From an uncultured Blautia sp. (lineage in GTDB: Bacteria; Bacillota; Clostridia; Lachnospirales; Lachnospiraceae): a DNA stretch of 64,000 nt. Location: NCBI RefSeq assembly GCF_934371575.1, contig NZ_CAKRNY010000017.1, forward strand, positions 1 to 64,000. The letters run 5' to 3'. Position numbers and translations under genes: made by a program. Below the pieces are notes generated by a model. That model did not search any database and was not told where the DNA came from. It saw only the letters and a list, made by a program, of their open reading frames with translations. Below, piece by piece: positions 7,926 through 52,296 of the stretch; the stretch's first letter is position 1, and every line of letters starts with the position of its first letter.

Positions 7926-10900
7926 ATGAATCGAAATAAAAGAATTTTGAATGTTACTATGGCTGCCGGAATGGCTGCTGTCCTTGGAACTTCACCGGTA
8001 ATTGCGGCAGCGCAGGAAACTGGGAATGGAGTATCAAAGGAAGAAACTGTATATGTAAATGCCACTGCAGAGGGTGAAGTAAAGGATATCACAGTATCTG
8101 ACTGGCTGAAAAATTCCGGAACTGCAGGTGGAGAGATATCTGATGTATCTGATCTTGAAGGAATCAAGAATGTAAAGGGAGATGAAACCTTTACCCAGGA
8201 TGGTGACAAGGTTACCTGGAATACAGACAGCAGTGATATCTACTATCAGGGAACCTCAAACAAAGAGCTTCCTGTAGATATGAAGATCAAATATTATCTG
8301 GATGGACAGGAGATTACTCCGGATGAGCTTGCCGGAAAAAGCGGACATCTTCGCATGGAAGTTTCCTATACTAATAAATCCAGAAAAACAGTAAAAGTTG
8401 ATAAAAAAGATATAGAAGTTTATTCTCCATTTGTTATGGTAACGGGAATGATTCTTTCTTCTGATAAATTTTCCAATGTTACTGTTGATAATGGAAAAGT
8501 AATTTCTGATGGCGATAAAGAGATGGTTGTAGGTGTTGCTGTTCCAGGATTAAAGGACAGTCTGGACTTAAGTGATGATCTTTCTGATAAAATCGACATT
8601 CCGGAAGGCTTTACAATGGAAGCTGATGTTACAGAGTGTTCTATGGGAAATACATTTACCATGGCTGTGACGGATATTCTCAGCAGTCTGAACCTTGATG
8701 ATTCTGATGATCTTGATGAGCTGCAGGATTCTCTTGATAAGCTGGATGATGCAGCTGTGAAACTGGTAGACGGATCCAAGGAACTTTTTGACGGAACAAA
8801 GGATCTCTACGATGGAACAAAGGACCTGAAGGATGGAACCAGCAAGCTTTATGATGGCGCCAGTGATCTGGATGATGGAGCAAAAGAACTGGCAGACGGA
8901 ACCGGTACTTTGTATGATGGAACAAAAGATTTGGATGATGGAGCCAAGACATTGAACACAGGTGCCGGACAGTTATATGATGGAACTTCTTCTTTATATA
9001 GCGGAACCAAAACACTTTACGATGGAACAAGAACACTCTATGGCGGAGCAAGTACACTGGCTTCCAGCTATAATGAGTTTGACGCAGGTGTTGCAAGTGC
9101 CAAGAGCGGAGCTTCCCAGTTAAACAGCGGAGCGAAATCTCTTCAGAGCGGTATCTCACAGTACACTTCAGGCGTGGACAGTCTGGCATCCGGTGTGAAC
9201 AATTATACCAAAGGGGTTGATACTGTAAATAGCAACCTGAAAGAGTACAATAAGGGAATGAAATCCCTGACAGATGGTGTGAACCAGTATGTTGCAGGTG
9301 GAAATCAGCTGGCATCCGGTGTGACAGATTATGTAAACGGAGCCCTTCAGCTGACAGATGGTGTGAGCCAGTATGTAACAGGAGCACATACACTTGCTGA
9401 GGGAACCAAGTCCTATGTGGAAGGAACAAGTGCACTGGTAGAAGGTGTTGGACAGCTGGCACCTGGAATTCAGCAGGCAGCTGACGGACTTACAAGTGCT
9501 GCAACTCAGTTATCCGGTATTGCAGAAAATGTTGCAAAAGCGGATATTCCGAATATGACTTCTAATCTGCAAACCTATGCAGCCGGAGCTACAGCTCTTG
9601 CAACTGGAATTCAGACTTATACACAGGCTGCTGAAAAGGCAGCAGCCGGAGCTGAGCAGGTAGCAGCCGGAGCCTCCAGCCTGGCAGATGGAACCTCCAG
9701 TGTAGCAGCAGGTGCTTCCGGTGTTGCAACAGCAGCAGAAGAGGTAAGTACAGGAGCTGCCGGACTTAAGAGCGGTCTGGAAGGGTTGCGGGATGAGATC
9801 AGCCAGATTGATGAGGGCTCTTCTGTAGAAAGTCAGGTAAGTAATCTTGCACAGTCTGTACGTGATGCGGCAGCCAGCATTCAGACAAGTGTGGAAGTAC
9901 AGGCAGCAGGTGTTTCCACTGGTGCGGCAGCTGGACAGATCAGTGCAGTATCCGGTTCCGTTAACAGAGCTTTGTCTAGTCTGGAAAATATTGATACTTC
10001 TGAACTTGATGAGGGAACCGCAGCTGCAATCAACAGTGCCATCAGCCAGTTGTATGCAGCAGCAGACAGCGCTGATGCAGCCCAGGGAGAACTGGCTGAT
10101 GTTGCAGCTCAGGCCGGAGGCACTGTGACAGCAGATACAAATGGAGCAGCAGTTCAGGAAACCTTAAATGCTCTTGCAGATCAGATAGACGGTGCTGTAA
10201 GTGCTTATTCAGCTGCAGATGGTAAGAACGAAGCACTTCAGACAGTAAATACGCTGATTGCAGCAGCAGATCAGGTATCTTCCGGAGCAGCCCAGCTGTC
10301 CGCCGGTGCGAAGCAGACAGCCGATGGAGCAGCTCAGACAGCAGAGGGTGCAAAGAATCTGAAAGAAGGAACTGATACACTGAACAGTGGTTTACAGCAG
10401 CTGACCAGTCAGGATGAAACTTTAAATGACGGCAGTGCAAAAGTAATCGCAGCAGGTGAGCAGGTTAATACAAGCGCTGAGGCGGTAAATAAAATTGCTT
10501 CTGGACTTACAGCGGAAAAAGTAGAAGAGATGCAGGCCCAGGTCAAAGCTTTAAGTGACGGTGCAAAACAGATTTTTGCAGGTAATGAACAGCTTCAGGA
10601 GGGCTACAGTAAGTTGCAGAAATCAGGAGCGGCAACACAGCTTACAGACGGAGCAGATAAACTGATCGCAAATGAGAGCACTCTTACAAACGGTATTACA
10701 GCACTTCAGGGTGAGGACAATGCAAATGCAAATGCCCTTCTTGGTGGAGCAGCTACATTGCAGAAAGCAAAATCCAGTCTTGACAGTGGCCTTAGTTCAA
10801 TCAGTAAGGCAACCGGACAGCTGGTTTCAGGTGTTGGTACAATTGCTGCAAACAGTATCGCACTTAGAAGTGGTGCTTCCCAGCTTACAGCAAACAGTGG

Positions 10901-40631: not shown

Positions 40632-40722
40632 TATTAATTTCTGACACAGACAAAGGCGTATGAACGCGAAATGAAAAGTAGAATCTTGTAAAGAATTATT
40701 ACTTTAAAGAGGCAAAAATTTA

Positions 40723-40751
40723 TAGACATGATATATCACCAATGCTATAAT
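40723..40751 (+). promoter_or_regulatory. Promoter of the riboswitch-controlled operon
   Basis: TAGACA (40723-40728), 17-bp spacer, TATAAT (40746-40751). The predicted start is about 20 nt before the riboswitch aptamer. Confidence 0.75.
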
Positions 40752-40771
40752 TAGACATATTTTTATGGCAT

Positions 40772-40880
40772 ATTTATTGGCAAACCGGTTGAAAAGCCGG
40801 GACGCAAAGCTAGAAGGAGCTAAAGTCAGTTAGAAATCTGACCATGCTAGCCAGTTGCATCATGCCTCAGTAATAATAAA
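40772..40880 (+). promoter_or_regulatory. Cyclic-di-GMP riboswitch, class I (GEMM-I)
   Basis: The GEMM-I hallmarks are in order: GGCAAACC, a hairpin loop carrying GAAA, GGGACGCAAAGC, then a second hairpin (TCAG/CTGA) and the closing GCTAGCCAG-type segment. The aptamer binds c-di-GMP between its two helices. It is followed by an intrinsic terminator and then a c-di-GMP-related HD-GYP gene, so ligand binding should set read-through into the operon. Direction (on or off) cannot be told by eye. Confidence 0.9.
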
Positions 40881-40905
40881 GGTAAATGTTAAGTGGGTAT
40901 TATGG

Positions 40906-40946
40906 AAAAAGTTCCTGTAAATTTTTTACATGGGACTTTTTTTGCT
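40906..40946 (+). terminator. Riboswitch expression-platform terminator
   Basis: AAAAAGTTCC, then TGTAA pairing with TTACA, then TGGGACTTTTTTT: a long stem ending in at least seven T residues, about 25-30 nt after the aptamer and 30 nt before the first gene. Confidence 0.85.
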
Positions 40947-40977
40947 CAAATTTGAGGAAAAGTAAAGGTATGAAGAT

Positions 40978-42495
40978 ATGGACAAAAGACAAAATATACT
41001 TATTGTAGATGATGCAGAATTTAACAGAGCTATATTAAAGGAATTTCTTGGAGAAGCCTATAGCTATTTAGAAGCAGAAAATGGAAATCAGGCAATCCAG
41101 ATTTTGGAGGAAAATCCGGAAATCGACCTGATGCTTTTGGATATCAACATGCCGCAGATGAACGGCTTTGAAGTCCTGGAATGGATGAACCGGCTCCATT
41201 GGATTGATGAAACTCCTGTTATCATGATCTCTTCAGAAGAATCTGTTGATGCCATGCGTAAAGCTTATGAAATGGGAATCACAGATTATATTACACGCCC
41301 CTTTGACTCTGTTATTGTAAAGAAAAGAGTCCAGAATACTTTGGGGCTTTATGCAAACCAAAAGCGTCTGGTCAATGTGGTTGTAGACCAGGTTTATGAA
41401 AAAGAAGAAAATAATAATATTATGATTGGAATCCTGAGCAATGTACTTGGATTTCGTAACAGCGAGAGCAGGGAGCATATTTTACATATTCGCACCGCAA
41501 CGGAAATGATGCTGAGAAAGCTGGTAAAAACAACGGATGCCTATCATCTGACAGAGACGGATATTGCTTTGATCACAACGGCATCCTCCCTTCATGATAT
41601 CGGTAAGGTTGGCATCCCGGAGGAAATACTGAATAAACCGGGCAGACTGACTGATGAAGAGTTTAAGATCATGAAAACCCACAGTGAAATAGGAGCATCC
41701 CTGATTCAGGATATGCGCTTCCAGAAAGATAAACCGTTGGTGCATACTGCATGGGAAATCTGCAGATGGCATCATGAAAGGTGGGATGGAAAGGGGTATC
41801 CGGATGGACTGAAAGGTGAAGAGATACCGATTTCTGCACAGGTTGTATCGATTGTGGATGTATATGATGCACTTACCAGCGAAAGATGTTATAAAAAAGC
41901 ATTTGATCATGATACAGCGATTCAAATGATTCTGGATGGGCAGTGTGGACAGTTCAATCCGGTTCTGCTTAAGTGTCTGAAGGAGCTTAGCCCTCAGCTC
42001 TCCAAAATGTTTAATAACGAGATGGATGACAATAAACAGTATTATGAAGCGCAGAGGCTCTCTGACGAAATATTACGGGAAAAGTCTTTACCTCGTAAAA
42101 ATTATTCCCGGCGTGTCATTAAGCTTATGCAGGAAAAGATAGAGTTTTTTAAAACGAACAGCAGCAGGAATTCCATTGAGTACAATGTAATTTCTGGCCA
42201 ATTAACCGTAATAAACGGAAAACAGCAGACGTTATATCAGAGAGATAATCCGAAATTTGATGTATTCAAAATATTTGAAGTAAGTGAAGAAGAGGTTCAG
42301 CATATCGTAGATTTGTTGAATCAGACATCCATAGAAAATAAAGAAATATCATTGCAGGTAATGGCAAAGGTGGAAAATAAAAGACAGATGTATGATCTGA
42401 AGCTGCATACGTTATGGTCTCCTTTAATGAAAGACGGATTTATAGGAATTGTGGGATATTTTGATATTGCAAAACAGGAAAATGCAAAAGAGTAG
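40978..42495 (+). CDS. Response regulator with HD-GYP c-di-GMP phosphodiesterase domain
   Basis: A 505-residue regulator. An N-terminal receiver domain (about 5-122; Asp55 in LMLLDINMP) is followed by an HD-GYP domain (about 150-345) with HDIGK (His206-Asp207) and HHERWDGKGYP (265-275). A C-terminal region of about 130 residues looks PAS-like but I cannot name it. HD-GYP proteins hydrolyse c-di-GMP, so placement behind a c-di-GMP riboswitch suggests feedback control. It is the first gene of a five-gene operon and the most likely soluble output for the downstream kinases. Enzymatic activity is inferred from motifs. Confidence 0.9.
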   Translation: MDKRQNILIVDDAEFNRAILKEFLGEAYSYLEAENGNQAIQILEENPEIDLMLLDINMPQMNGFEVLEWMNRLHWIDETPVIMISSEESVDAMRKAYEMGITDYITRPFDSVIVKKRVQNTLGLYANQKRLVNVVVDQVYEKEENNNIMIGILSNVLGFRNSESREHILHIRTATEMMLRKLVKTTDAYHLTETDIALITTASSLHDIGKVGIPEEILNKPGRLTDEEFKIMKTHSEIGASLIQDMRFQKDKPLVHTAWEICRWHHERWDGKGYPDGLKGEEIPISAQVVSIVDVYDALTSERCYKKAFDHDTAIQMILDGQCGQFNPVLLKCLKELSPQLSKMFNNEMDDNKQYYEAQRLSDEILREKSLPRKNYSRRVIKLMQEKIEFFKTNSSRNSIEYNVISGQLTVINGKQQTLYQRDNPKFDVFKIFEVSEEEVQHIVDLLNQTSIENKEISLQVMAKVENKRQMYDLKLHTLWSPLMKDGFIGIVGYFDIAKQENAKE

Positions 42496-42511
42496 CAGGA
42501 ATGGAAGGAAG

Positions 42512-43327
42512 ATGAAAGTAAAACGAATGATTGCAGGCGTTCTGCTTGTGGGAGTTTTAGCGACTGTCCTTACAGGATGCAGAAACGCAGATGTCAGTAA
42601 AGAAGAAACAGAAAAGCCTGTCATCACGCTGGGCAGTGACAGTTATCCACCATACAATTATCTAAATGAAGACGGAATCCCCACAGGGATAGATGTAGAA
42701 CTGGCGACAGAAGCTTTCGATAGAATGGGTTATCAGGTAGATGTTGTCCAGATCAACTGGGAAGAGAAAAAAGAACTGGTAGAGAGCGGGGAGATTGACT
42801 GTATCATGGGCTGTTTTTCCATGGAAGGACGCCTTGACGATTACCGCTGGGCAGGACCGTACATAGCAAGCCGTCAGGTGGTTGCTGTAAATGAGAGCAG
42901 TGATATCTATAAGCTGAGTGACCTGGAGGGAAAGAACCTTGCCGTCCAGTCCACAACCAAACCGGAAGGCATTTTTCTGAACCGGACGGATACGAGAATC
43001 CCCAGGCTGGGCAATCTGATCAGCCTTGGGCACAGGGAACTGATCTATACCTTTCTGGGAAAAGGATATGTTGATGCAGTAGCCGCACACGAAGAATCTA
43101 TCGTCCAGTATATGAAGGATTATGATGCAAGCTTCCGCATCCTGGAAGAACCTTTGATGATCACCGGAATAGGTGTTGCTTTCGCAAAAAACGACGACAG
43201 AGGGATCTGTGAGCAGATGGAACAGACACTGGAAGAGATGAGGCAGGATGGTACGACTCTGAAAATTATTGAAAAATATCTGGATGATCCCCAGAAGTAT
43301 CTGGAGGTGGATGATCTTGGATATTAA
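42512..43327 (+). CDS. Family 3 solute-binding lipoprotein, probable sensory partner
   Basis: A 271-residue lipoprotein with a signal peptide ending in the lipobox LTGC (Cys about 22). It is followed by an SBP_bac_3 domain typical of amino-acid binding proteins (SDSYPPYNYLNEDGIPTGIDVELA; DCIMGCFSMEGRLDDYRWAGPY). No ABC permease or ATPase is nearby; the next gene is a membrane hybrid kinase that it overlaps by about 10 bp. I infer that it delivers ligand to that kinase rather than to a transporter. The start at 42512 follows GGAAGGAAG. Confidence 0.85.
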   Translation: MKVKRMIAGVLLVGVLATVLTGCRNADVSKEETEKPVITLGSDSYPPYNYLNEDGIPTGIDVELATEAFDRMGYQVDVVQINWEEKKELVESGEIDCIMGCFSMEGRLDDYRWAGPYIASRQVVAVNESSDIYKLSDLEGKNLAVQSTTKPEGIFLNRTDTRIPRLGNLISLGHRELIYTFLGKGYVDAVAAHEESIVQYMKDYDASFRILEEPLMITGIGVAFAKNDDRGICEQMEQTLEEMRQDGTTLKIIEKYLDDPQKYLEVDDLGY

Positions 43328-45515
43328 GAGAAAGAAAAAAGAAAAACGAATCCAGCTGATCGGAGGCCTGATTGGATTCTGTGTGGCTGTAGTCTCTCTG
43401 TTTTATTTCTTTCATGCGGAGAAAGCGGAAGCAGAGAAAAGAATGGTGGAGATTGTAAATTATGTAAAAGTACAGTGTTCTACCTACACTCATTATAATG
43501 AATCTTCGGAATCCAAAAGTCTTCTCCGTGCCATTGAAAGTGCCAGACAGATGAGTACAAATATCGACATGGAAATAGAAAACGGCGGTCAGCTAAGCCA
43601 GAAGTTTCTGAAAGAAAACCTGCAGACTCTCTGGGTGGATGGTATCATTGTACTGGATACAGAAGGAAAGACGGACTGTGAATACAGCACGGACGAGGCT
43701 CTGGCTAATGAGATTACGGAGTATCTGCAAAAAGAAATTATTATGGATTTTGCCGGATATGAAGAAAGATCTTATTCGGAACGGTTTACCAGGGAAAACG
43801 GATCACGTATCGACATTGCAGCCTGCGCCAGAAAAGATGCACCAGGTATCGTTGCAATTTATTATTATACATCTCCCGAATTTGTCAGGAACTATACACT
43901 GACCATACAGGGGCTTTTAAATGGCTATAGTGTCCAGAAAGATGGAACGATTATTGTTGCAGACAATGGGATTGTTGTTGCCAGTAATGATGAAAGCCTG
44001 TTGGGGCAGAATACAGCCGGTAATGAGGTCGTTCAGGCAATGAAAAAGCATACAGACAGCCAGCACATCTACCATTTGAAGAATGAAGGAACCAGATGCT
44101 ACGGAATCATGCTGAAGCAGCGGGATTACTATATTTATGCATATCTTCCGGATACAGAAGTGTTCCATAATCTTCCATTAAGTGTGATAAGTGTTATTTT
44201 TCTTTATTTTCTGCTGTTCAGTTTATTCTGGTTCTGGACATACAGAACCAATCTGGCGCACCGGAAACAGGAACAGGAAAAAGATGAAAAATATAAAGCT
44301 GAACTTCTGATAGCAGCAAAAAAGGCAGAAGCCGCCAATGAGGCAAAAACCGAGTTTCTCCAGCGGATGAGTCATGATATCAGGACTCCGATCAATGGAA
44401 TCTGTGGTATGATTGATGTGGCAGACCATTATGCAGACAATATGGAGAAACAGACGGAATGCAGAGAAAAGGTCAAAGAGGCATCCAATCTGTTGCTGGA
44501 ACTGGTAAATGATGTTCTGGACATGAGTAAGCTTGAATCAGATGAAATTGTTCTGGAAGAGATTCCATTTAATCTAAGCAGTATTTCCAGGGAAGTATTT
44601 GTTGTGATCGAGCAGATGGCTGCAGAACAGAATATCCAGATCGAGTGGGAGAAAAAAGAAATCATACACCGGGATTTTATAGGAAGTCCAGGGTATGTGA
44701 AACGGGTGATGATGAATATCCTGTCCAATGCGGTGAAATATAACAGACAAAACGGACATATCTATATCAGCTGCATGGAAATCCCATCCGAACAGCCAGA
44801 AATGACCACAATGGAATTTGTCTGCCGGGATACAGGAATCGGAATGACTGAGGAGTTCCAGAAATGTGTATTTGAACCATTTGCACAGGAACATACAGGA
44901 AGCCGCACAAAATTTGCCGGAACAGGACTTGGAATGTCGATTGCAAAGAATCTGGTCGAGAAAATGGGCGGAACCATTACCTTTGAAAGTGAAGAAGGCA
45001 CAGGAACTACATTTGTGATCCGGGTTCCGTTCAAAATAGATATGAATGCGGATAAACGTGAAAAACAGAAGGATGTATCAGAAAAATCTATAAAGGGGCT
45101 CCACATTCTTCTGGCAGAAGACAATGACTTGAATATGGAAATTGCTGAATTTATGCTTCAGAACGAAGGGGCTGTCGTGACGAAAGCATGGAATGGACAG
45201 GAGGCTGTGGAAATATTCAGAAAAAGCGGATCTGGTGAATTTGATGTTATTCTTATGGACATTATGATGCCGGTCATGAATGGATATGAAGCAGCAAAGA
45301 CGATCCGCTCCATGGACAGAGAGGACGCAAAGGTGGTTCCAATCATTGCAATGACAGCAAATGCGTTCACAGAGGACAGACTGAGGGCAAGGGAAGCAGG
45401 AATGGATGAACATATAGCAAAGCCTGTTGATGGAAAATTATTGATAAAGGTAATTCATAAACTGGTGAAACACGATTTCAGGGAGCGTCATAATGAAAAA
45501 GAAAAAACGGAATAA
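43317..45515 (+). CDS. Hybrid sensor histidine kinase with receiver domain
   Basis: About 732 residues. Membrane segments near 13-31 and 283-305 enclose an extracytoplasmic Cache-like sensor. HisKA carries MSHDIRTPING (phospho-acceptor His about 353), the HATPase has DTGIGM and GTGLGMSIAKNLV, and a C-terminal receiver has Asp about 648 in DVILMDIMMP. The start is uncertain: TTG 43317 has GGAGGTGG at good spacing, while ATG 43311 is too close to it. The gene overlaps both neighbouring lipoprotein genes, so translation is probably coupled. No HPt domain protein is seen in the operon. Confidence 0.9.
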   Translation: MDIKRKKKEKRIQLIGGLIGFCVAVVSLFYFFHAEKAEAEKRMVEIVNYVKVQCSTYTHYNESSESKSLLRAIESARQMSTNIDMEIENGGQLSQKFLKENLQTLWVDGIIVLDTEGKTDCEYSTDEALANEITEYLQKEIIMDFAGYEERSYSERFTRENGSRIDIAACARKDAPGIVAIYYYTSPEFVRNYTLTIQGLLNGYSVQKDGTIIVADNGIVVASNDESLLGQNTAGNEVVQAMKKHTDSQHIYHLKNEGTRCYGIMLKQRDYYIYAYLPDTEVFHNLPLSVISVIFLYFLLFSLFWFWTYRTNLAHRKQEQEKDEKYKAELLIAAKKAEAANEAKTEFLQRMSHDIRTPINGICGMIDVADHYADNMEKQTECREKVKEASNLLLELVNDVLDMSKLESDEIVLEEIPFNLSSISREVFVVIEQMAAEQNIQIEWEKKEIIHRDFIGSPGYVKRVMMNILSNAVKYNRQNGHIYISCMEIPSEQPEMTTMEFVCRDTGIGMTEEFQKCVFEPFAQEHTGSRTKFAGTGLGMSIAKNLVEKMGGTITFESEEGTGTTFVIRVPFKIDMNADKREKQKDVSEKSIKGLHILLAEDNDLNMEIAEFMLQNEGAVVTKAWNGQEAVEIFRKSGSGEFDVILMDIMMPVMNGYEAAKTIRSMDREDAKVVPIIAMTANAFTEDRLRAREAGMDEHIAKPVDGKLLIKVIHKLVKHDFRERHNEKEKTE

Positions 45516-47343
45516 GTTACTTGCTGTACTTCTGGTGATGGCGACAGGCACATCACTTTTGTCAGGCTGTGGCAGAAAAAGTGCAGAAAAAGAAGATGCA
45601 GAAACCATCACGGTATATTTATGGAGCACCAGCCTGTATGAGAAATATGCACCATACATCCAGGAACAGCTTCCGGATATCAATGTTGAATTTGTTGTAG
45701 GCAATAATGATCTGGACTTTTATAAGTTTCTTGATGAAAACGGTGGATTGCCGGATATTATAACCTGCTGCCGGTTTTCCCTGCATGATGCAAGTTCACT
45801 GAAGGACAGTCTGATGGATCTTTCCACAACCAATGCGGCAGGTGCTGTCTATGATACCTACCTCAGCAACTTTATGAACGAGGATGGCAGCGTAAACTGG
45901 CTTCCTGTGTGTGCAGATGCCCATGGTTTTGTAGTGAACAAGGATCTTTTTGAAAAGTATGAGATTCCGCTGCCAACCGATTATGAAAGCTTCGTTTCTG
46001 CCTGCCAGGCATTTGACGAGGTGGGAATCCGCGGCTTTACAGCGGACTATTATTACGATTATACCTGTATGGAAACCCTGCAGGGGCTGTCTGCATCAGA
46101 ATTGTCTTCTGTAGACGGGCGCAAGTGGCGCACCACCTACAGTGACCCGGATAATACAAAGAGAGAAGGCCTGGACGGTACCGTCTGGCCAGAGGCTTTT
46201 GAACGCATGGAACAGTTTATCCAGGATACAGGGCTGAATCAGGACGATCTGGATATGAATTATGATGATATAGTTGAGATGTACCAGAGTGGTAAGCTTG
46301 CCATGTACTTCGGCAGCTCAGCTGGTGTAAAAATGTTTCAGGATCAGGGCATCAACACAACATTTCTTCCATTCTTCCAGGAGAATGGCGAAAAGTGGCT
46401 GATGACGACCCCATATTTCCAGGTGGCCTTAAACCGTGACCTGACACAGGACGAGACGCGCCGGAAGAAAGCAATGAAGGTACTGAATACAATGCTTTCA
46501 GAGGATGCACAGAACCGGATCATTTATGATGGACAGGATCTGTTAAGCTACAGTCAGAATGTGGATCTTAAGCTTACAGAGTATCTGAAGGATGTGAAAC
46601 CTGTGATCGAAGAAAACCATATGTATATCCGCATTGCGTCAAATGACTTTTTCTCTGTTTCCAGGGATGTGGTGTCTAAAATGATCTCAGGAGAATACGA
46701 TGCAGAGCAGGCTTATCAGTCATTTAATACCCAGCTTCTTGCGGAAGAATCTGCTTCAGAGAATATCGTGCTGGATTCACAGAAATCCTATTCCAACCGC
46801 TTCCATAGCAGTGGAGGAAATGCTTCATATTCTGTTATGGCAAATACTCTGCGTGGCATCTATGGGACGGATGTGCTGATCGCAACCGGAAACAGCTTTA
46901 CCGGAAGTGTGCTGAAAGCCGGCTATACGGAAAAAATGGCAGGCGACATGATCATGCCAAACAGTCTTTCGGCCTATAGCTGCAAGGTAAGCGGGGCAGA
47001 ACTGACAGAGATGGTCAGAAACTTTGTAGAAGGCTACCAGGGATGCTTCATTCCCTTTAACCGGGGCTCTCTGCCTGTGGTCAGCGGCATTTCCGTGGAA
47101 GTCAAAGAAACAGAGGATGGCTATACATTGAGTAAAGTTACAAAAGATGGAAAAAAAGTTCAGGACAAAGATACATTCACGGTAACCTGCCTTGCGATAC
47201 CCAAACACATGGAAGCTTATCCCACAGATGAGAATATTGTGTTTAAGGGAGAAAACACCTTTGTGAAAGATACCTGGACAGAATATATTTCAGATGGTGA
47301 TGCCATTCTTGCAGAGCCTGAAGATTACATGACTCTGAGGTGA
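45493..47343 (+). CDS. Family 1 solute-binding lipoprotein fused to a 5'-nucleotidase C-terminal-like domain
   Basis: A 616-residue lipoprotein with lipobox LSGC (Cys about 26). Residues about 36-400 form an SBP_bac_1-type binding domain (ITVYLWSTS, then GLPDIITCCRFS). From about 435 the sequence changes to a 5_nucleotid_C-like domain (YSVMANTLRGIYGTDVLIATGNS, then SAYSCKVSGAELTEMVRNFVEG). The metallophosphatase domain that normally precedes it in 5'-nucleotidases is absent. No transporter is adjacent; the gene lies between two hybrid kinases. I infer a ligand sensor with two binding modules. Confidence 0.8.
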   Translation: MKKKKRNKLLAVLLVMATGTSLLSGCGRKSAEKEDAETITVYLWSTSLYEKYAPYIQEQLPDINVEFVVGNNDLDFYKFLDENGGLPDIITCCRFSLHDASSLKDSLMDLSTTNAAGAVYDTYLSNFMNEDGSVNWLPVCADAHGFVVNKDLFEKYEIPLPTDYESFVSACQAFDEVGIRGFTADYYYDYTCMETLQGLSASELSSVDGRKWRTTYSDPDNTKREGLDGTVWPEAFERMEQFIQDTGLNQDDLDMNYDDIVEMYQSGKLAMYFGSSAGVKMFQDQGINTTFLPFFQENGEKWLMTTPYFQVALNRDLTQDETRRKKAMKVLNTMLSEDAQNRIIYDGQDLLSYSQNVDLKLTEYLKDVKPVIEENHMYIRIASNDFFSVSRDVVSKMISGEYDAEQAYQSFNTQLLAEESASENIVLDSQKSYSNRFHSSGGNASYSVMANTLRGIYGTDVLIATGNSFTGSVLKAGYTEKMAGDMIMPNSLSAYSCKVSGAELTEMVRNFVEGYQGCFIPFNRGSLPVVSGISVEVKETEDGYTLSKVTKDGKKVQDKDTFTVTCLAIPKHMEAYPTDENIVFKGENTFVKDTWTEYISDGDAILAEPEDYMTLR

Positions 47344-47348
47344 GAAGA

Positions 47349-50300
47349 ATGGATATTAAGAAGCATAACAAAGGCAGAGAAAAGACTGTTATGAGAAAAC
47401 GATTCCGGATAACTGTCTTTACAGCTGTTTTACTGGGAATTGTTCTGATGGTTTTCCGATATTTTGACTTTGTGTCGAAAACCATTTATGAGGAAAGTGT
47501 TTCCCATCTGACGGAGGTTTTTCATCAGTCTGATAATATGTTAAGAGAACTGACAGATAAGAACCTGACCTATCTTCATATGTGGGGGGAGAATCTGCAG
47601 AATACCTCCAGCGAAGATGAAATTCGTGATTATATAAAGAAAGCGCAGGAAGATGCCGGATTTTTGGATTTCTTTTTTCTGTCAGCCGACGGGAACTATA
47701 AGATGGTGACAGGGGAAACCGGGTATCTTGGATTACAGGAAAATATTGAAGAGGACATCCGGCAGGGAAATGATGTGATATCAAATGCAGCAGTTCCAGG
47801 AAAATCCCAGCTGCTTGTTTTTGCCACTCCCAAGGCTCATGGAAACTATCAGGGATTTGAATATGATGCCATTGCCATTGCTTATGAAAACTCTGATATC
47901 GTAGATGTACTGGATATTTCTGCTTTCGATGGAAATGCCCAGAGTTTTATTGTCCATCCGGATGGCCGTGTTGTGGTGGATCATTCTTCTGAGGCATGGG
48001 GAAATGTGTATAATTTCTTCGGTGTTCTGAGAGAGTATTCTGATATGTCTGAAAAAGAGGTCAATGAGCTTTCGGAGAAGTTTAAAGCAGGATATACCGG
48101 TGCGATGCTGGTAAATCTGGATGGAAGGAACTATTATCTGGTCTATGAAAAATCGGATATTCAGGACTGGGTATTTCTGGGACTTGTACAGGCGGATATT
48201 GTCAATGCCAGTATGAACAGCCTGCAGCGTAGTACAATGTTCCTTGTGGTTGCAGTTGTGCTCTGTATTGCCGCTTTACTTATCAGTTTTATTATTCAAA
48301 AAAGCAGGGCAAGTCTTAGAAGAAAAGATGCAGAGATCCTGTACAGGGACGAGCTGTTTCAAAAGCTGTCAATGAATGTGGATGACGTTTTCCTGATGCT
48401 GGATGCAAAAACATATCAGGCAGATTACGTCAGCCCGAATGTGGAAAAGCTGCTGGGCATTACCGTAGAACAGATCCGCAAAGATATCAGTATTCTTGGA
48501 AAACTGCATACAGGGGAGTCAGAAGATCCGGAGAAAAATTATCTGGAGAAAATCCAGGTTCATGAACAAGAAGAATGTGATTTTGAATATGTTCACCAGA
48601 AAACCGGGGAAAAACGCTGGTTCCATAATATTGTAATGGGTAGTGAGGTAAACGGGAAAAAGAAATATATCCTGGTTTTGTCGGACCGTACCGCTGACTG
48701 GAAAATGAACCAGGCACTCTCTGAGGCAGTACGTGCGGCGGAAACTGCAAACAAGGCAAAGAGTACCTTCCTCTCCAATATGTCTCACGATATCCGGACC
48801 CCAATGAATGCGATCATCGGCTTTACCACACTGGCTGTAAGCAATATTGATGATAAAAACAGGGTCCGGGATTATTTGGGCAAGATCCTTTCCTCCAGTA
48901 ACCATCTGCTTTCCCTGATCAATGATATCCTGGATATGAGCCGGATTGAGAGTGGAAAGATCCATCTGGAAGAAACGGAGGTCAGTCTGTCAGATGTGCT
49001 TCATGATCTGAAGACCATAATCAGTGGGCAGATTCATGCGAAACAGCTGGAGCTTTATATGGATGCCATGGATGTTACCAATGAGGATGTCTATTGTGAT
49101 AAGACGAGACTAAACCAGGTGCTTTTAAATCTTCTGTCCAATGCGATCAAGTTTACTCCTGCTGGAGGAACCGTTTCTGTCCGGCTGAAACAGTATCCGG
49201 GGCTCCAAAGAGGCAGTGAACTGTACGAGATCCGGGTAAAGGATAACGGAATCGGTATGAGTCAGGAATTTGTACAGAAGATCTTTTCTCCTTTTGAGCG
49301 GGAGCGGACTTCTACTGTGAGCAGGACTCAGGGCACAGGGCTTGGCATGGCCATCACCAAGAATATTGTGGATATGATGGGCGGCACCATTGAGGTTCGG
49401 ACCGAACAGGGAAAAGGCACCGAATTTATCGTCCGTCTGCCATTCCGGACTCAGCCTGAGCACCAACGTATAGAGAAGATCATAGAGCTGGAAGGCCTTA
49501 AGGCTCTGGTGGTAGATGACGATTTTAATACCTGTGACAGTGTGACAAAGATGCTTGTAAAGGTTGGAATGCGTTCGGAATGGACACTTTCCGGTAAGGA
49601 GGCTGTTCTGCGTGCACGGCAGTCTATGGAGCTTGGGGATGCCTTTCATGCCTATATCATCGACTGGCGTCTGCCAGATATGAATGGTATTGAGGTCACC
49701 AGACAGATCCGCAGTCTTGGTGACGATACACCGATCATTATTCTGACTGCTTATGACTGGTCAGACATCGAAGTGGAAGCCAGGGCAGCAGGGGTAACTG
49801 CATTCTGCGCGAAACCTCTGTTTATGTCCGATATCAGAGATACCCTGATGGCTGCCATCGGCCAGAAGCAGGCAGATGCAGAGGACACAATCCTTCCGGC
49901 GGCAGGTTCAGATTTCCGAGGTAAATGTATTTTGCTTGTGGAAGACAATGAACTGAACAGTGAAATTGCGGTGGAGATCCTGAATGAATATGGCTTCCTG
50001 GTTGATACTGCAGAAAACGGGGCAGAGGCAGTAGAGAAGGTTAAGAGTTCGAAACCGGGTGGCTATGATCTGGTGCTGATGGATGTGCAGATGCCGGTAA
50101 TGAACGGATATGAGGCCACGAAGCAGATCCGTGCCCTTAGGGATCCGGCACTGGCAGGAATTACCATCCTTGCCATGACTGCCAATGCTTTTGACGAGGA
50201 CAGAAAGAAAGCACTGGAATGCGGTATGAATGGATTCTTATCCAAACCAATTGTTATAGAGGAATTGATCAGTACGTTACAAAATAATCTGGTAGATTAG
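47349..50300 (+). CDS. Hybrid sensor histidine kinase with PAS and two receiver domains
   Basis: 983 residues in this order: membrane segment (about 20-38), Cache-like extracytoplasmic domain, second membrane segment (about 293-313), PAS domain (about 330-450), HisKA with MSHDIRTPMN (His about 480), and HATPase with DNGIGM and GTGLGMAITKNIV. Two receivers follow, with Asp about 772 in YIIDWRLP and Asp about 912 in LVLMDVQMP. The ATG at 47349 has GAGGTGA 5 nt upstream. It is the last gene of the operon; a terminator follows directly. Confidence 0.92.
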   Translation: MDIKKHNKGREKTVMRKRFRITVFTAVLLGIVLMVFRYFDFVSKTIYEESVSHLTEVFHQSDNMLRELTDKNLTYLHMWGENLQNTSSEDEIRDYIKKAQEDAGFLDFFFLSADGNYKMVTGETGYLGLQENIEEDIRQGNDVISNAAVPGKSQLLVFATPKAHGNYQGFEYDAIAIAYENSDIVDVLDISAFDGNAQSFIVHPDGRVVVDHSSEAWGNVYNFFGVLREYSDMSEKEVNELSEKFKAGYTGAMLVNLDGRNYYLVYEKSDIQDWVFLGLVQADIVNASMNSLQRSTMFLVVAVVLCIAALLISFIIQKSRASLRRKDAEILYRDELFQKLSMNVDDVFLMLDAKTYQADYVSPNVEKLLGITVEQIRKDISILGKLHTGESEDPEKNYLEKIQVHEQEECDFEYVHQKTGEKRWFHNIVMGSEVNGKKKYILVLSDRTADWKMNQALSEAVRAAETANKAKSTFLSNMSHDIRTPMNAIIGFTTLAVSNIDDKNRVRDYLGKILSSSNHLLSLINDILDMSRIESGKIHLEETEVSLSDVLHDLKTIISGQIHAKQLELYMDAMDVTNEDVYCDKTRLNQVLLNLLSNAIKFTPAGGTVSVRLKQYPGLQRGSELYEIRVKDNGIGMSQEFVQKIFSPFERERTSTVSRTQGTGLGMAITKNIVDMMGGTIEVRTEQGKGTEFIVRLPFRTQPEHQRIEKIIELEGLKALVVDDDFNTCDSVTKMLVKVGMRSEWTLSGKEAVLRARQSMELGDAFHAYIIDWRLPDMNGIEVTRQIRSLGDDTPIIILTAYDWSDIEVEARAAGVTAFCAKPLFMSDIRDTLMAAIGQKQADAEDTILPAAGSDFRGKCILLVEDNELNSEIAVEILNEYGFLVDTAENGAEAVEKVKSSKPGGYDLVLMDVQMPVMNGYEATKQIRALRDPALAGITILAMTANAFDEDRKKALECGMNGFLSKPIVIEELISTLQNNLVD

Positions 50301-50305
50301 TAATA

Positions 50306-50364
50306 AAAAAACCTGCTAAGAAGTTCGGTTAACAAGTTTGGTTAACAACTTTTTAGCAGGTTTT
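50306..50364. terminator. Bidirectional terminator between kinase and diguanylate cyclase genes
   Basis: AAAAAACCTGCTAA pairs with TTAGCAGGTTTTT, with inner AGTT/AACT and TTAAC/GTTAA pairs. The A-run and T-run on either side serve the two convergent genes. Confidence 0.9.
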
Positions 50365-50369
50365 TAAAT

Positions 50370-52130
50370 TTATTCGGAAAATTTATCACTGTAACGAAGA
50401 TGCATATCTTCCCAATCCATGAACAATACATAAAATACTTTTCCGTATTGCTGGCTTTCTACGATTCTTCCATGGTCAAGCACAGAAAGATAAGTTCCGT
50501 CAGCTTTTCGAAGATGAAAGTGAATATAGTCATTTTCATTGCCTCTGTCAATCTGTTTCCAGATGCTTGCTTCAATCTTTTGCTGTTCATCTTGGCAGAT
50601 CAGATTGCGGAACCTTTTTTGGGTAAGCCTGAATAGTTCATCCATACTCTTATAACCAGTCATATGAAGAAATTCGTGGTTTGCATAAAAGAGCTCATCA
50701 TCTTCTTTGTCTGCTCTATATATGATAAATGCTCCTGGCAGGTGTTCAGAGATATCCTTAAGTGCAAATCCAAGCTGTTTGCGGACTCCTGACTGGAGAC
50801 CTTTTCTGTAAGCCATACATCCGTTTTTTCCATGGAGTTTTATTTCATAAAGAGCTGCATCTGCACAGCGCATAAGCTGTGAATGGCTGGCTGCAAATGT
50901 TGGATATTCTGCATATCCGAGAGATATATAAAATGCATGTTCTTTACCGTGATGTGAAAATGTTTTTGGAAGCTTAGTGAATTGCTGCAGCTGTTCATCT
51001 GCCTCATTAAAGGTACAATTTGGTAAAAGAATGCAGAATTCGTCACCACCATTTCTTCCAAGCAATGCATCGGATGGGAAAAAAGCTTTCATACTGTCTG
51101 CCAGACTCTTTAATGCTTTGTCTCCGTAACTATGGCCATAGATATCATTGATAAACTTAAAGTCATCAATATCAAGGAGCGCAGCCACAAAATGTGTTTG
51201 CGGATTTTTAGAAATTATTTTTTCAGCTAATTCATCAAATCCATAGCGATTATAAATATTCGTAAGAGAATCTGTGCGCGCCAGTATTTTATATTTGTTC
51301 TTGTGTTCTTTTGCTACAAGCCATACTCTGGTAAGCGCTGACAGAAGAAAGCTTATAGTAAGAAATATTCCACTGATAATTATCAGTAGTGTGTTATTTC
51401 TCCATCCGGTTTTAGGAGTTATCTCAAATTTCCAGGTTTCATCTCCTATTGTAAATATATAAGAAACCGGATGATCTATTTGACCATCGGACTGATAAAC
51501 CACTGTATAAGTATCACTCCAGGGAGTGTCTGTTTTTAAAATTTTGTATTCATATCCAAAATTGGAAAGTGCACTGACTGCATCTGAAAAAATATTCGGA
51601 ACACGCAGGATAGCAATGGTAAATCCCCAGAAATACTCTTGTCCGTCGTTATCTTTCAGGTAGACTGGATTGCGGACTGCAATTCCATAACCGCCCTGTT
51701 TTAATTCGAAGGGTCCCTGCGTAATGATTGTATGGTTATCTCTTGCGTAGCAGGAAATCTCTTTACGGTCTTTATCATGGAGCAGATCAATCTTACCTGC
51801 TTCATTTCCTTCAGCCGGATAAATATCTGTTACAACACCATTGGGAGCGAGCTGCACGCTTTCAATAGAATCAGACATAAGATTCCCGGCAATCGTGTCA
51901 AACTGGTGAATCTCGCCATTTTCACTGATTAAGATCTGTTCCAAAGCATCTGTAATTTCAATTCCATTTGCAATTTCATTCTTTATGCGTTCACCATAGG
52001 TGGTTGCGTTTAATTGTGCCAATATGTGTCTCTGATTTTTTTCATGGGTGTCTGTTTTGTATAAAATCAAACCAGCAAGGCATATGCCCAGTAAAAAAAT
52101 AATAAGAGGCACAAGTGTTTTCTTCTTCAC
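50370..52130 (-). CDS. Membrane diguanylate cyclase: CHASE-GGDEF-PAS
   Basis: A 586-residue protein with a membrane segment (about 4-24), an extracytoplasmic CHASE-like domain (about 40-245), a second membrane segment (about 250-272) and a GGDEF domain with the intact GGDEF motif near residue 360. A C-terminal PAS-like domain (about 455-580) follows. It should make c-di-GMP from GTP; no upstream RxxD inhibitory site stands out. The GTG at 52130 is preferred because GAGGTGA lies 6-7 nt upstream; another GTG three codons earlier overlaps that site. It converges on the c-di-GMP riboswitch operon and probably feeds the same pool. Confidence 0.9.
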   Translation of the reverse strand: MKKKTLVPLIIFLLGICLAGLILYKTDTHEKNQRHILAQLNATTYGERIKNEIANGIEITDALEQILISENGEIHQFDTIAGNLMSDSIESVQLAPNGVVTDIYPAEGNEAGKIDLLHDKDRKEISCYARDNHTIITQGPFELKQGGYGIAVRNPVYLKDNDGQEYFWGFTIAILRVPNIFSDAVSALSNFGYEYKILKTDTPWSDTYTVVYQSDGQIDHPVSYIFTIGDETWKFEITPKTGWRNNTLLIIISGIFLTISFLLSALTRVWLVAKEHKNKYKILARTDSLTNIYNRYGFDELAEKIISKNPQTHFVAALLDIDDFKFINDIYGHSYGDKALKSLADSMKAFFPSDALLGRNGGDEFCILLPNCTFNEADEQLQQFTKLPKTFSHHGKEHAFYISLGYAEYPTFAASHSQLMRCADAALYEIKLHGKNGCMAYRKGLQSGVRKQLGFALKDISEHLPGAFIIYRADKEDDELFYANHEFLHMTGYKSMDELFRLTQKRFRNLICQDEQQKIEASIWKQIDRGNENDYIHFHLRKADGTYLSVLDHGRIVESQQYGKVFYVLFMDWEDMHLRYSDKFSE

Positions 52131-52296
52131 TTGGTTCACCTCATTTTATGCATTGGATTTTTTATAATAAAGCATTATATCATAGACGTTAAAAAAGAAA
52201 ATAATGTTTCTGAAAAAAGACAATATATTTTGGGGCTTTCTCTTTGCATATGATGAAGCTTGACGAAATTTAAATTTTCTTTTTATGTAGAAAAAC

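What the first reader, a model, noticed from the sequence alone, without database searches (positions are those of the whole stretch)
40723..52130. A c-di-GMP riboswitch heads a five-gene sensory operon facing a diguanylate cyclase
Seen: riboswitch and terminator, then HD-GYP regulator, family-3 binding lipoprotein, hybrid kinase, family-1/5'-nucleotidase-like lipoprotein and a second hybrid kinase, with small gaps or overlaps. A CHASE-GGDEF protein converges from the other side. There is no transporter gene. Inference: two external ligands are bound by lipoproteins and passed to two kinases, with c-di-GMP turnover as output and c-di-GMP as operon-level feedback. I do not know a described system with this exact set.
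Basis: partly seen in the sequence, partly recalled or inferred. Interest (0 to 1): 0.75.

Follow-up and report, generated by a model that had tools for sequence, protein, structure and literature searches.

The report
Mobile c-di-GMP-gated sensory kinase cassette
A block of sensor genes that has moved between different gut bacteria sits behind an RNA switch that probably shuts it off when the cell's own signal molecule c-di-GMP is high, so the cell would sense outside nutrients only in one of its lifestyle states.

Summary
A c-di-GMP-I riboswitch (68.9 bits) heads HD-GYP regulator, family-3 binding lipoprotein (SBP3), hybrid kinase HK1, family-1 lipoprotein with a weak 5'-nucleotidase-like C-terminus (SBP1N) and hybrid kinase HK2. 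A CHASE-GGDEF gene converges; no permease or transport ATPase is present.

The context changes the picture. All of this is an ~11.6-kb island between recX and rny; that site is empty in 7 of 8 relatives checked. SBP3-HK1-SBP1N-HK2 recurs in other Lachnospiraceae genera with fewer silent changes than recA (42 of 42 comparisons), so it spreads horizontally. The five-gene set is not conserved. The stable units are two pairs, SBP1N-HK2 (13 of 13 close copies) and SBP3-HK1 (11 of 13); HD-GYP is intact in 3 of 13. In 12 cassette-bearing genomes 31 of 48 c-di-GMP-I riboswitches head SBP or kinase genes, against 4 of 38 sampled elsewhere. Folding predicts OFF switches. A single-domain HPt lies beside REC-HD-GYP genes in 5 of 12 genomes and inside one complete array in A. 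hallii.

Best model (inferred): lipoprotein, hybrid kinase, HPt, REC-HD-GYP phosphodiesterase, with receptor expression gated off by high c-di-GMP. Components are known; the mobile, riboswitch-gated repertoire appears to be a new variant.

The parts
40632..52272 (.). island inserted between recX and rny (boundaries approximate: left between 40632 and 40720, right between 52227 and 52272)
   Evidence: recX and rny (in L059 recA and rny) adjacent in 7 of 8 relatives with both genes on the contig; rny promoter homology begins at 52272-52291; DNA match to L009 runs to 52227
40723..40751 (+). promoter, TAGACA-17-TATAAT with extended TG
   Evidence: 11 of 12 matches; leader DNA from 40720 matches B. 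wexlerae L003 at 88.6%
40769..40862 (+). c-di-GMP-I riboswitch aptamer
   Evidence: RF01051 68.9 bits
40815..40821 (+). AGGAGCU, predicted antiterminator strand inside the aptamer; pairs with 40910-40916
   Evidence: pair probabilities 0.85-0.93 before the terminator 3' arm is made
40907..40943 (+). intrinsic terminator (bulged hairpin plus T run)
   Evidence: conserved in L003, L006 and L008
40978..42495 (+). REC-HD-GYP response regulator, predicted c-di-GMP phosphodiesterase
   Evidence: PF00072, PF13487; motifs present
42512..43327 (+). SBP3: family-3 (amino-acid type) solute-binding lipoprotein
   Evidence: PF00497; lipobox LTGC; PDB amino-acid SBPs
43311..45515 (+). HK1: membrane hybrid histidine kinase, HisKA-HATPase-REC (ORF opens at TTG 43269; ATG 43311 more likely)
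45493..47343 (+). SBP1N: family-1 (sugar type) solute-binding lipoprotein with degenerate 5'-nucleotidase-like C-terminal domain
47340..50300 (+). HK2: weak dCache, weak PAS, HisKA-HATPase-REC-REC hybrid kinase
50370..52139 (-). CHASE-GGDEF-PAS diguanylate cyclase, convergent
   Evidence: 94% in Fusicatenibacter L009 at NG86 dS 0.12

Best explanation
A horizontally spreading sensory cassette of gut Lachnospiraceae. Two lipid-anchored solute-binding proteins each signal to the hybrid kinase encoded next to them (SBP3 to HK1, SBP1N to HK2). The kinases pass phosphate through their own receiver domains to a genome-encoded HPt hub and on to REC-HD-GYP regulators, changing c-di-GMP breakdown. Transcription is gated by a c-di-GMP-I riboswitch that is predicted to terminate when c-di-GMP is high, so receptors are made in the low c-di-GMP state. 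Because this operon also carries the phosphodiesterase, the predicted loop is double-negative and could latch. Shown: gene content, pairing, mobility, riboswitch association, HPt neighbourhood in some relatives. Inferred: docking, ligands, phosphotransfer, OFF logic in vivo.
For: Riboswitch and genes. Pairing: SBP1N-HK2 13 of 13 close copies, SBP3-HK1 11 of 13, order shuffled. SBP_bac_3-kinase fusions in nearby genes, 5 of 9 proteins scanned. Mobility: empty site in 7 of 8; pS of the four cassette genes 0.29-0.52 against recA 0.54-0.80, lower in 42 of 42 comparisons; the Blautia group is present in the recA tree (89/88, below the tool's star) but rejected by SBP1N+HK2 DNA, p-AU 0.0055. Riboswitch association: 31 of 48 against 4 of 38; a 110-nt leader at 95% identity or more in 11 of 397 genomes, before different receptor genes. 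OFF logic: antiterminator and terminator compete, 134 of 136 inner pairs kept over 17 distinct type A leaders. Relay: 1-3 Hpt against 24-37 HisKA matches per genome; HPt beside REC-HD-GYP in 5 of 12 genomes and inside the riboswitch-kinase-kinase-HPt-HD-GYP array L266.
Against: A tblastn with one HPt query found none in the window, and the window's own genome is not held. In 6 of 12 genomes the fetched HPt has no REC-HD-GYP gene within the stretch read (L272-L277). HD-GYP is not intact in 10 of 13 cassettes, so c-di-GMP output may not be the general case. Three of 13 cassettes (L007, L008, L011) lack the riboswitch; in L008 promoter and terminator remain and the aptamer is gone. Antiterminator: in L131 it is only 57-61% populated and not the minimum-energy fold; two leaders (L139, L147) were left out of the pair count because their 3' segment does not fit the pattern; type C leaders were not analysed. 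AlphaFold models were poor (mean pLDDT 52.5 and 50.2), so there is no structural support for docking. No ligand is known. No transcript data.
Confidence: 0.6

Rival explanations
1. The kinases do not act on c-di-GMP: they control transcription factors or other regulators elsewhere, and HD-GYP and GGDEF genes are incidental hitch-hikers.
For: HD-GYP intact in only 3 of 13 cassettes and GGDEF adjoining 2 of 13; no HPt match in the window; in 6 of 12 genomes the fetched HPt is not beside a REC-HD-GYP gene.
Against: HPt, the middle step for most hybrid kinases (general knowledge), sits beside REC-HD-GYP genes in 5 of 12 genomes and inside one riboswitch array with the window-type HD-GYP; the GGDEF family recurs near riboswitch-kinase arrays in G005, G006 and G110, though not in the other 6 genomes that have it.
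Confidence: 0.25
2. The lipoproteins are orphan uptake proteins that serve distant ABC permeases, and the kinases sense through their own Cache domains.
For: HK2 has a weak dCache match; both lipoproteins belong to transport families.
Against: Near-invariant adjacency and overlap with kinases; no BPD_transp or ABC_tran in 20 neighbours picked for testing; SBP_bac_3 domains fused to kinases in sister genes.
Confidence: 0.15
3. The riboswitch is an ON switch, so c-di-GMP raises receptor expression.
For: A class II c-di-GMP riboswitch activates the CmrRST signalling operon of C. difficile (passages of PMC8844915).
Against: The antiterminator strands overlap the aptamer and the terminator 5' arm in leader types A and B, which fits ligand-induced termination; the flgB riboswitch of C. 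difficile is also negative (same passages; listed as c-di-GMP-I in passages of PMC11477304).
Confidence: 0.15
4. Vertical inheritance with extreme protein conservation rather than gene transfer.
For: B. schinkii and A. hallii share a longer block including a ZIP gene downstream.
Against: Silent-site divergence is below recA in all 42 comparisons, which protein conservation does not explain; patchy presence, close copies in 9 of 397 genomes; empty sites; group rejected.
Confidence: 0.04

Closest known systems
CuaDSR three-component system of Ruminiclostridium cellulolyticum (PMC10384115; abstract and passages seen) and XylFII-LytS, cited there
   Same: A solute-binding lipoprotein encoded beside a sensor kinase and reported to bind it.
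   Different: There a two-component kinase and regulator control genes of a cellodextrin transporter; here hybrid kinases, two SBPs, HD-GYP gene and riboswitch control.
CmrRST of Clostridioides difficile (PMC8844915 and PMC11477304; passages seen)
   Same: A c-di-GMP riboswitch heads a signal-transduction operon.
   Different: Class II, activating, with two response regulators and a phase switch; not described there with SBPs.
LuxP-LuxQ-LuxU of Vibrio (recalled) and the HptB network of Pseudomonas aeruginosa (passages of PMC5812489)
   Same: Periplasmic SBP plus hybrid kinase (LuxPQ); several hybrid kinases converging on one HPt with effects on c-di-GMP (HptB).
   Different: Gram-negative; output regulator HsbR is not REC-HD-GYP; riboswitch gating not known to me there; HPt is unlinked in our window.
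BvgS/EvgS hybrid kinases (PDB 4q0c BvgS is a weak hit of SBP3)
   Same: Family-3 SBP domains feed a hybrid kinase; the ~950-aa sister kinases in these arrays share this layout.
   Different: In the window SBP and kinase are separate genes.

Membership tests
c-di-GMP-I riboswitch (RF01051) | score above Rfam gathering cut-off over the full model | tested here: met
   68.9 against 35 bits, model positions 1-87
c-di-GMP-I riboswitch (RF01051) | binds c-di-GMP and changes transcription | not testable with these tools
   folding only
SBP-kinase three-component system | lipoprotein SBP gene stably linked to a membrane kinase gene | tested here: met
SBP-kinase three-component system | no cognate permease beside the SBP | tested here: met
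   none in the window's operon; 0 of 20 chosen neighbour proteins in relatives with BPD_transp or ABC_tran, one with ABC_trans_CmpB
SBP-kinase three-component system | SBP binds the kinase ectodomain | not testable with these tools
   AlphaFold models of single chains poor
HPt phosphorelay (LuxPQ-LuxU / HptB like) | hybrid kinases with H and D sites plus an HPt in the same genome | tested here: inconclusive
   HPt in 12 of 12 relatives; the window's own genome is not held; no HPt match in the window with one query
HD-GYP phosphodiesterase | HD and HHExxDGxGYP motifs | tested here: met
diguanylate cyclase | GGDEF motif | tested here: met
   RNGGDEF; no RxxD inhibition site upstream (site recalled from general knowledge)
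5'-nucleotidase (UshA type) | PF02872 C-terminal domain above cut-off and a metallophosphatase domain | tested here: not met
   19.5 against 23.6 bits and no phosphatase domain

The most novel reading that the evidence does not exclude
Gut Lachnospiraceae share an exchangeable receptor repertoire: a near-identical promoter-riboswitch-terminator module is placed in front of different SBP-kinase receptors, spreads between genera, and plugs each receptor into one HPt hub that sets c-di-GMP. Sensing as a whole is switched off once c-di-GMP is high, making the choice of lifestyle bistable.
Probability: 0.4. Interest if true: 0.78.

Novelty: new variant of a known kind. Interest (0 to 1): 0.62.

Why it matters
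If true, several gut bacteria (Blautia, Fusicatenibacter, Anaerobutyricum, Coprococcus and relatives) exchange ready-made sensory modules the way other bacteria exchange resistance or capsule genes, and the modules are expressed only in one c-di-GMP state. It gives a concrete, testable function to c-di-GMP in commensal Lachnospiraceae: a many-to-one HPt relay ending in HD-GYP enzymes, with a riboswitch closing the loop.

Tried and rejected
Fixed five-gene operon: rejected, gene content and order vary. Flanking repeats at the island ends: no shared word of 9 or more bases between the two boundary regions, direct or inverted. Compositional foreignness: GC 0.422 against 0.437 for the rest of the window, uninformative. 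Carriage by integrative elements: recombinase genes lie within 4 kb upstream of 6 of 31 receptor-headed riboswitches against 0 of 17 others (p 0.077). This is weak and partly circular: three of the six (L002, L005, L009) are the loci that prompted the test and supplied its queries, some upstream stretches were cut by contig ends, and the elements may lie outside the cassette. AlphaFold2 of SBP1N and HK1: mean pLDDT 52.5 and 50.2; Foldseek hits to sugar SBPs and kinase cores add little beyond sequence. A profile of 13 SBP1N-family proteins found sugar SBPs in the PDB but no 5'-nucleotidase. A general rule that c-di-GMP-I riboswitches control kinases in the family: rejected by the control sample, 2 of 38 first genes and 4 of 38 within two genes, two of these being tandem copies at one locus. 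That sample is every third of the about 130 listed rows from genomes outside the cassette set, 40 in all, two of them without a downstream ORF; the listing itself was capped, and G123, which has a 36% SBP1N relative, was allowed in. In one search the seed taken for L265 was an ORF on the wrong strand; that label is disregarded and the HPt there rests. Literature: searches found no paper; the capped listings show none whose title or abstract start describes this set; PMC8050422 is not held.

Full report
WHAT IS THERE. One Rfam hit above gathering score in 64 kb, c-di-GMP-I at 40769-40862, 68.9 bits, lies just after a promoter with 11 of 12 consensus matches and before a bulged terminator. Five co-directional genes follow with small gaps or overlaps: REC-HD-GYP, SBP_bac_3 lipoprotein, hybrid kinase HK1, SBP_bac_1/8 lipoprotein SBP1N, hybrid kinase HK2. 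Both lipoproteins have lipoboxes, and HDIGK, HHERWDGKGYP and GGDEF motifs are present; the histidine and aspartate sites of both kinases were read by eye in the translations. A CHASE-GGDEF-PAS gene converges. The 5'-nucleotidase resemblance of SBP1N is weak (19.5 against a cut-off of 23.6 bits; a paralogue in L009 scores 26.4), and no phosphatase domain is present, so it is a binding protein with an extra domain, not an enzyme (inference).

AN ISLAND. Upstream are glgA, recA and recX; downstream are rny and two genes that I labelled spoIIM and xerD from memory without scanning them. In relatives recX (in L059 recA) is followed directly by rny: 7 of 8 loci where both genes are on the contig (L052, L053, L054, L056, L057, L058, L059); L060 has other genes between; L055 and L061 end early. 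The window's DNA match to Fusicatenibacter L009 runs from 42497 to 52227 at 89.6%, through the GGDEF gene and its promoter region, and rny-promoter homology to Blautia starts at 52272-52291. So about 11.6 kb was inserted there. No flanking repeat marks the ends, and no recombinase is among the genes of the island.

IT MOVES. A genome-contig scan gave 11 loci in 10 genomes of other Lachnospiraceae with SBP1N at 84-91% identity; a further copy is in G110, making 13 close copies with the window. Against the window, synonymous p-distance is 0.54-0.80 for recA (10 genomes) but 0.29-0.52 for SBP3, HK1, SBP1N and HK2; all 42 comparisons lie below the recA value of the same genome. recA was the only yardstick. 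A. hallii recA is 77% identical while its HK2 is 90%. The recA protein tree groups the window with three Blautia (support 89/88, not starred; the tree is poorly resolved); the SBP1N+HK2 DNA tree rejects that group (p-AU 0.0055) and puts the window with Fusicatenibacter copy b (90/99). In a 397-genome family draw 25 have a match at E 1e-20 or better, 9 of them at 84% or more (only three candidates were scored per genome).

WHAT IS CONSERVED. Not the set but two pairs. SBP1N is followed by HK2 in 13 of 13 close copies, and by an HK2-family kinase in the six diverged loci mapped (L063, where the kinase is shorter; L064; L066, with an SBP paralogue in between; L067; L068; L073); SBP3-HK1 overlap in 11 of 13 (absent in L005 and L062). 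Order is shuffled: L002 has HD-GYP in the middle, L006 has HD-GYP-SBP1N-HK2-SBP3-HK1, L005 and L062 only SBP1N-HK2. HD-GYP is intact in 3 of 13 (window, L002, L006), with DNA of its 3' part left in L062. Of 9 nearby proteins scanned, five, all of ~950 aa, are SBP_bac_3-kinase-REC fusions, a natural fusion of what SBP3 and HK1 are as two genes. Among 20 neighbours picked for testing no BPD_transp or ABC_tran domain was seen; one has ABC_trans_CmpB.

THE RIBOSWITCH IS PART OF THE SYSTEM. Ten of 13 cassettes are headed by a c-di-GMP-I riboswitch, counting L009, where it heads the co-directional array that leads into the cassette. L007, L008 and L011 lack it; L008 keeps promoter and terminator with the aptamer gone. 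In 12 cassette-bearing genomes 48 riboswitches exceed the cut-off; 31 have an SBP or hybrid-kinase gene among the first two genes, 29 as the first; one (L115) has no ORF before its contig ends (recounted by script). In a sample of 40 from other genomes of the family, 38 with an ORF, it is 4 (2 as first gene; the other two are tandem riboswitches at one locus). Fisher p is 2e-7, or 6e-5 after removing ten riboswitches that head the cassettes by which the genomes were chosen (21 of 38); members are not independent. A 110-nt leader (type A) is 95-100% identical in 11 of 397 genomes (only two candidates scored per genome), and such leaders head different receptor genes.

SWITCH LOGIC. In type A leaders the aptamer's 3' strand can pair with the terminator's 5' arm; over 17 distinct leaders 134 of 136 inner pairs are kept, and 4 or 5 of 5 outer pairs. 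These leaders are closely related, and two (L139, L147) with a different 3' segment were left out. In the window (type B) AGGAGCU inside the aptamer pairs with AGUUCCU of the terminator at probability 0.85-0.93 before the terminator is complete; the same holds in L117 (0.87-0.93), while in L131 it is 0.57-0.61 and the minimum-energy fold differs. Ligand would stabilise the aptamer and free the terminator: OFF at high c-di-GMP (inference).

OUTPUT. Hybrid kinases usually need an HPt (general knowledge). Each of the 12 genomes has 1-3 Hpt matches against 24-37 HisKA matches. The HPt gene is beside a REC-HD-GYP gene in 5 of 12 genomes (L267-L271). In A. hallii L266 one array reads riboswitch (10313-10388, minus), SBP3-kinase, SBP3-kinase, HPt, window-type REC-HD-GYP (79%) with gaps of 47-78 bp; in L264 the array ends in HPt; in L265 a 94% identical HPt frame follows the array but carries stops. 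Short HPt-like fragments follow kinase genes in L008 and L009. In six genomes (L272-L277) the HPt read has no REC-HD-GYP gene near it, three further Hpt matches (in G001, G009 and G322) were not looked at, and none was matched in the window. This supports, without proving, kinase to HPt to HD-GYP. The GGDEF family (78-94%, 9 of 12 genomes) lies near riboswitch-kinase arrays in G005, G006 and G110 only.

VERDICT. Every part is of a known kind; the combination, a horizontally spreading, riboswitch-gated SBP-hybrid-kinase repertoire with a probable HPt/HD-GYP outlet, did not turn up in the listings searched. Closest are CuaDSR (PMC10384115, abstract and passages), CmrRST (PMC8844915, passages), the HptB network (PMC5812489, passages) and, from memory, LuxPQ-LuxU. 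Ligands, docking, phosphate flow and the riboswitch response remain to be tested at the bench.

Noticed in passing
L008:6623-7015: C. fessum keeps the cassette's promoter and terminator but the aptamer between them is missing: a natural aptamer-loss allele.
   Followed up: partly
L005:7362-9167 and L227:1644-3398: Serine recombinases 98.8% identical in Fusicatenibacter and B. wexlerae, each about 700 bp upstream of a receptor-headed riboswitch of a different leader type; the shared DNA ends about 93 bp past the stop.
   Followed up: partly
L009:20218-20304 and L008:14808-14879: Short fragments (29 and 24 residues) resembling the HPt protein right after kinase genes, possibly remnants of array-end HPt genes.
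   Followed up: no
L107, L108, L109, L110, L111, L148, L149: A third leader type (C) heads ~930-1100-aa hybrid kinases in several genera; one of them (L003:801-4007, the same gene as in L107) has PAS domains.
   Followed up: no
L183, L191 (G138 C29): Several c-di-GMP-I riboswitches along one contig ahead of small genes, many of about 140-190 aa.
   Followed up: no
L001 and L010: B. schinkii and A. hallii share a ZIP transporter gene (92%) directly after the array, so the shared block can extend beyond the kinases.
   Followed up: partly
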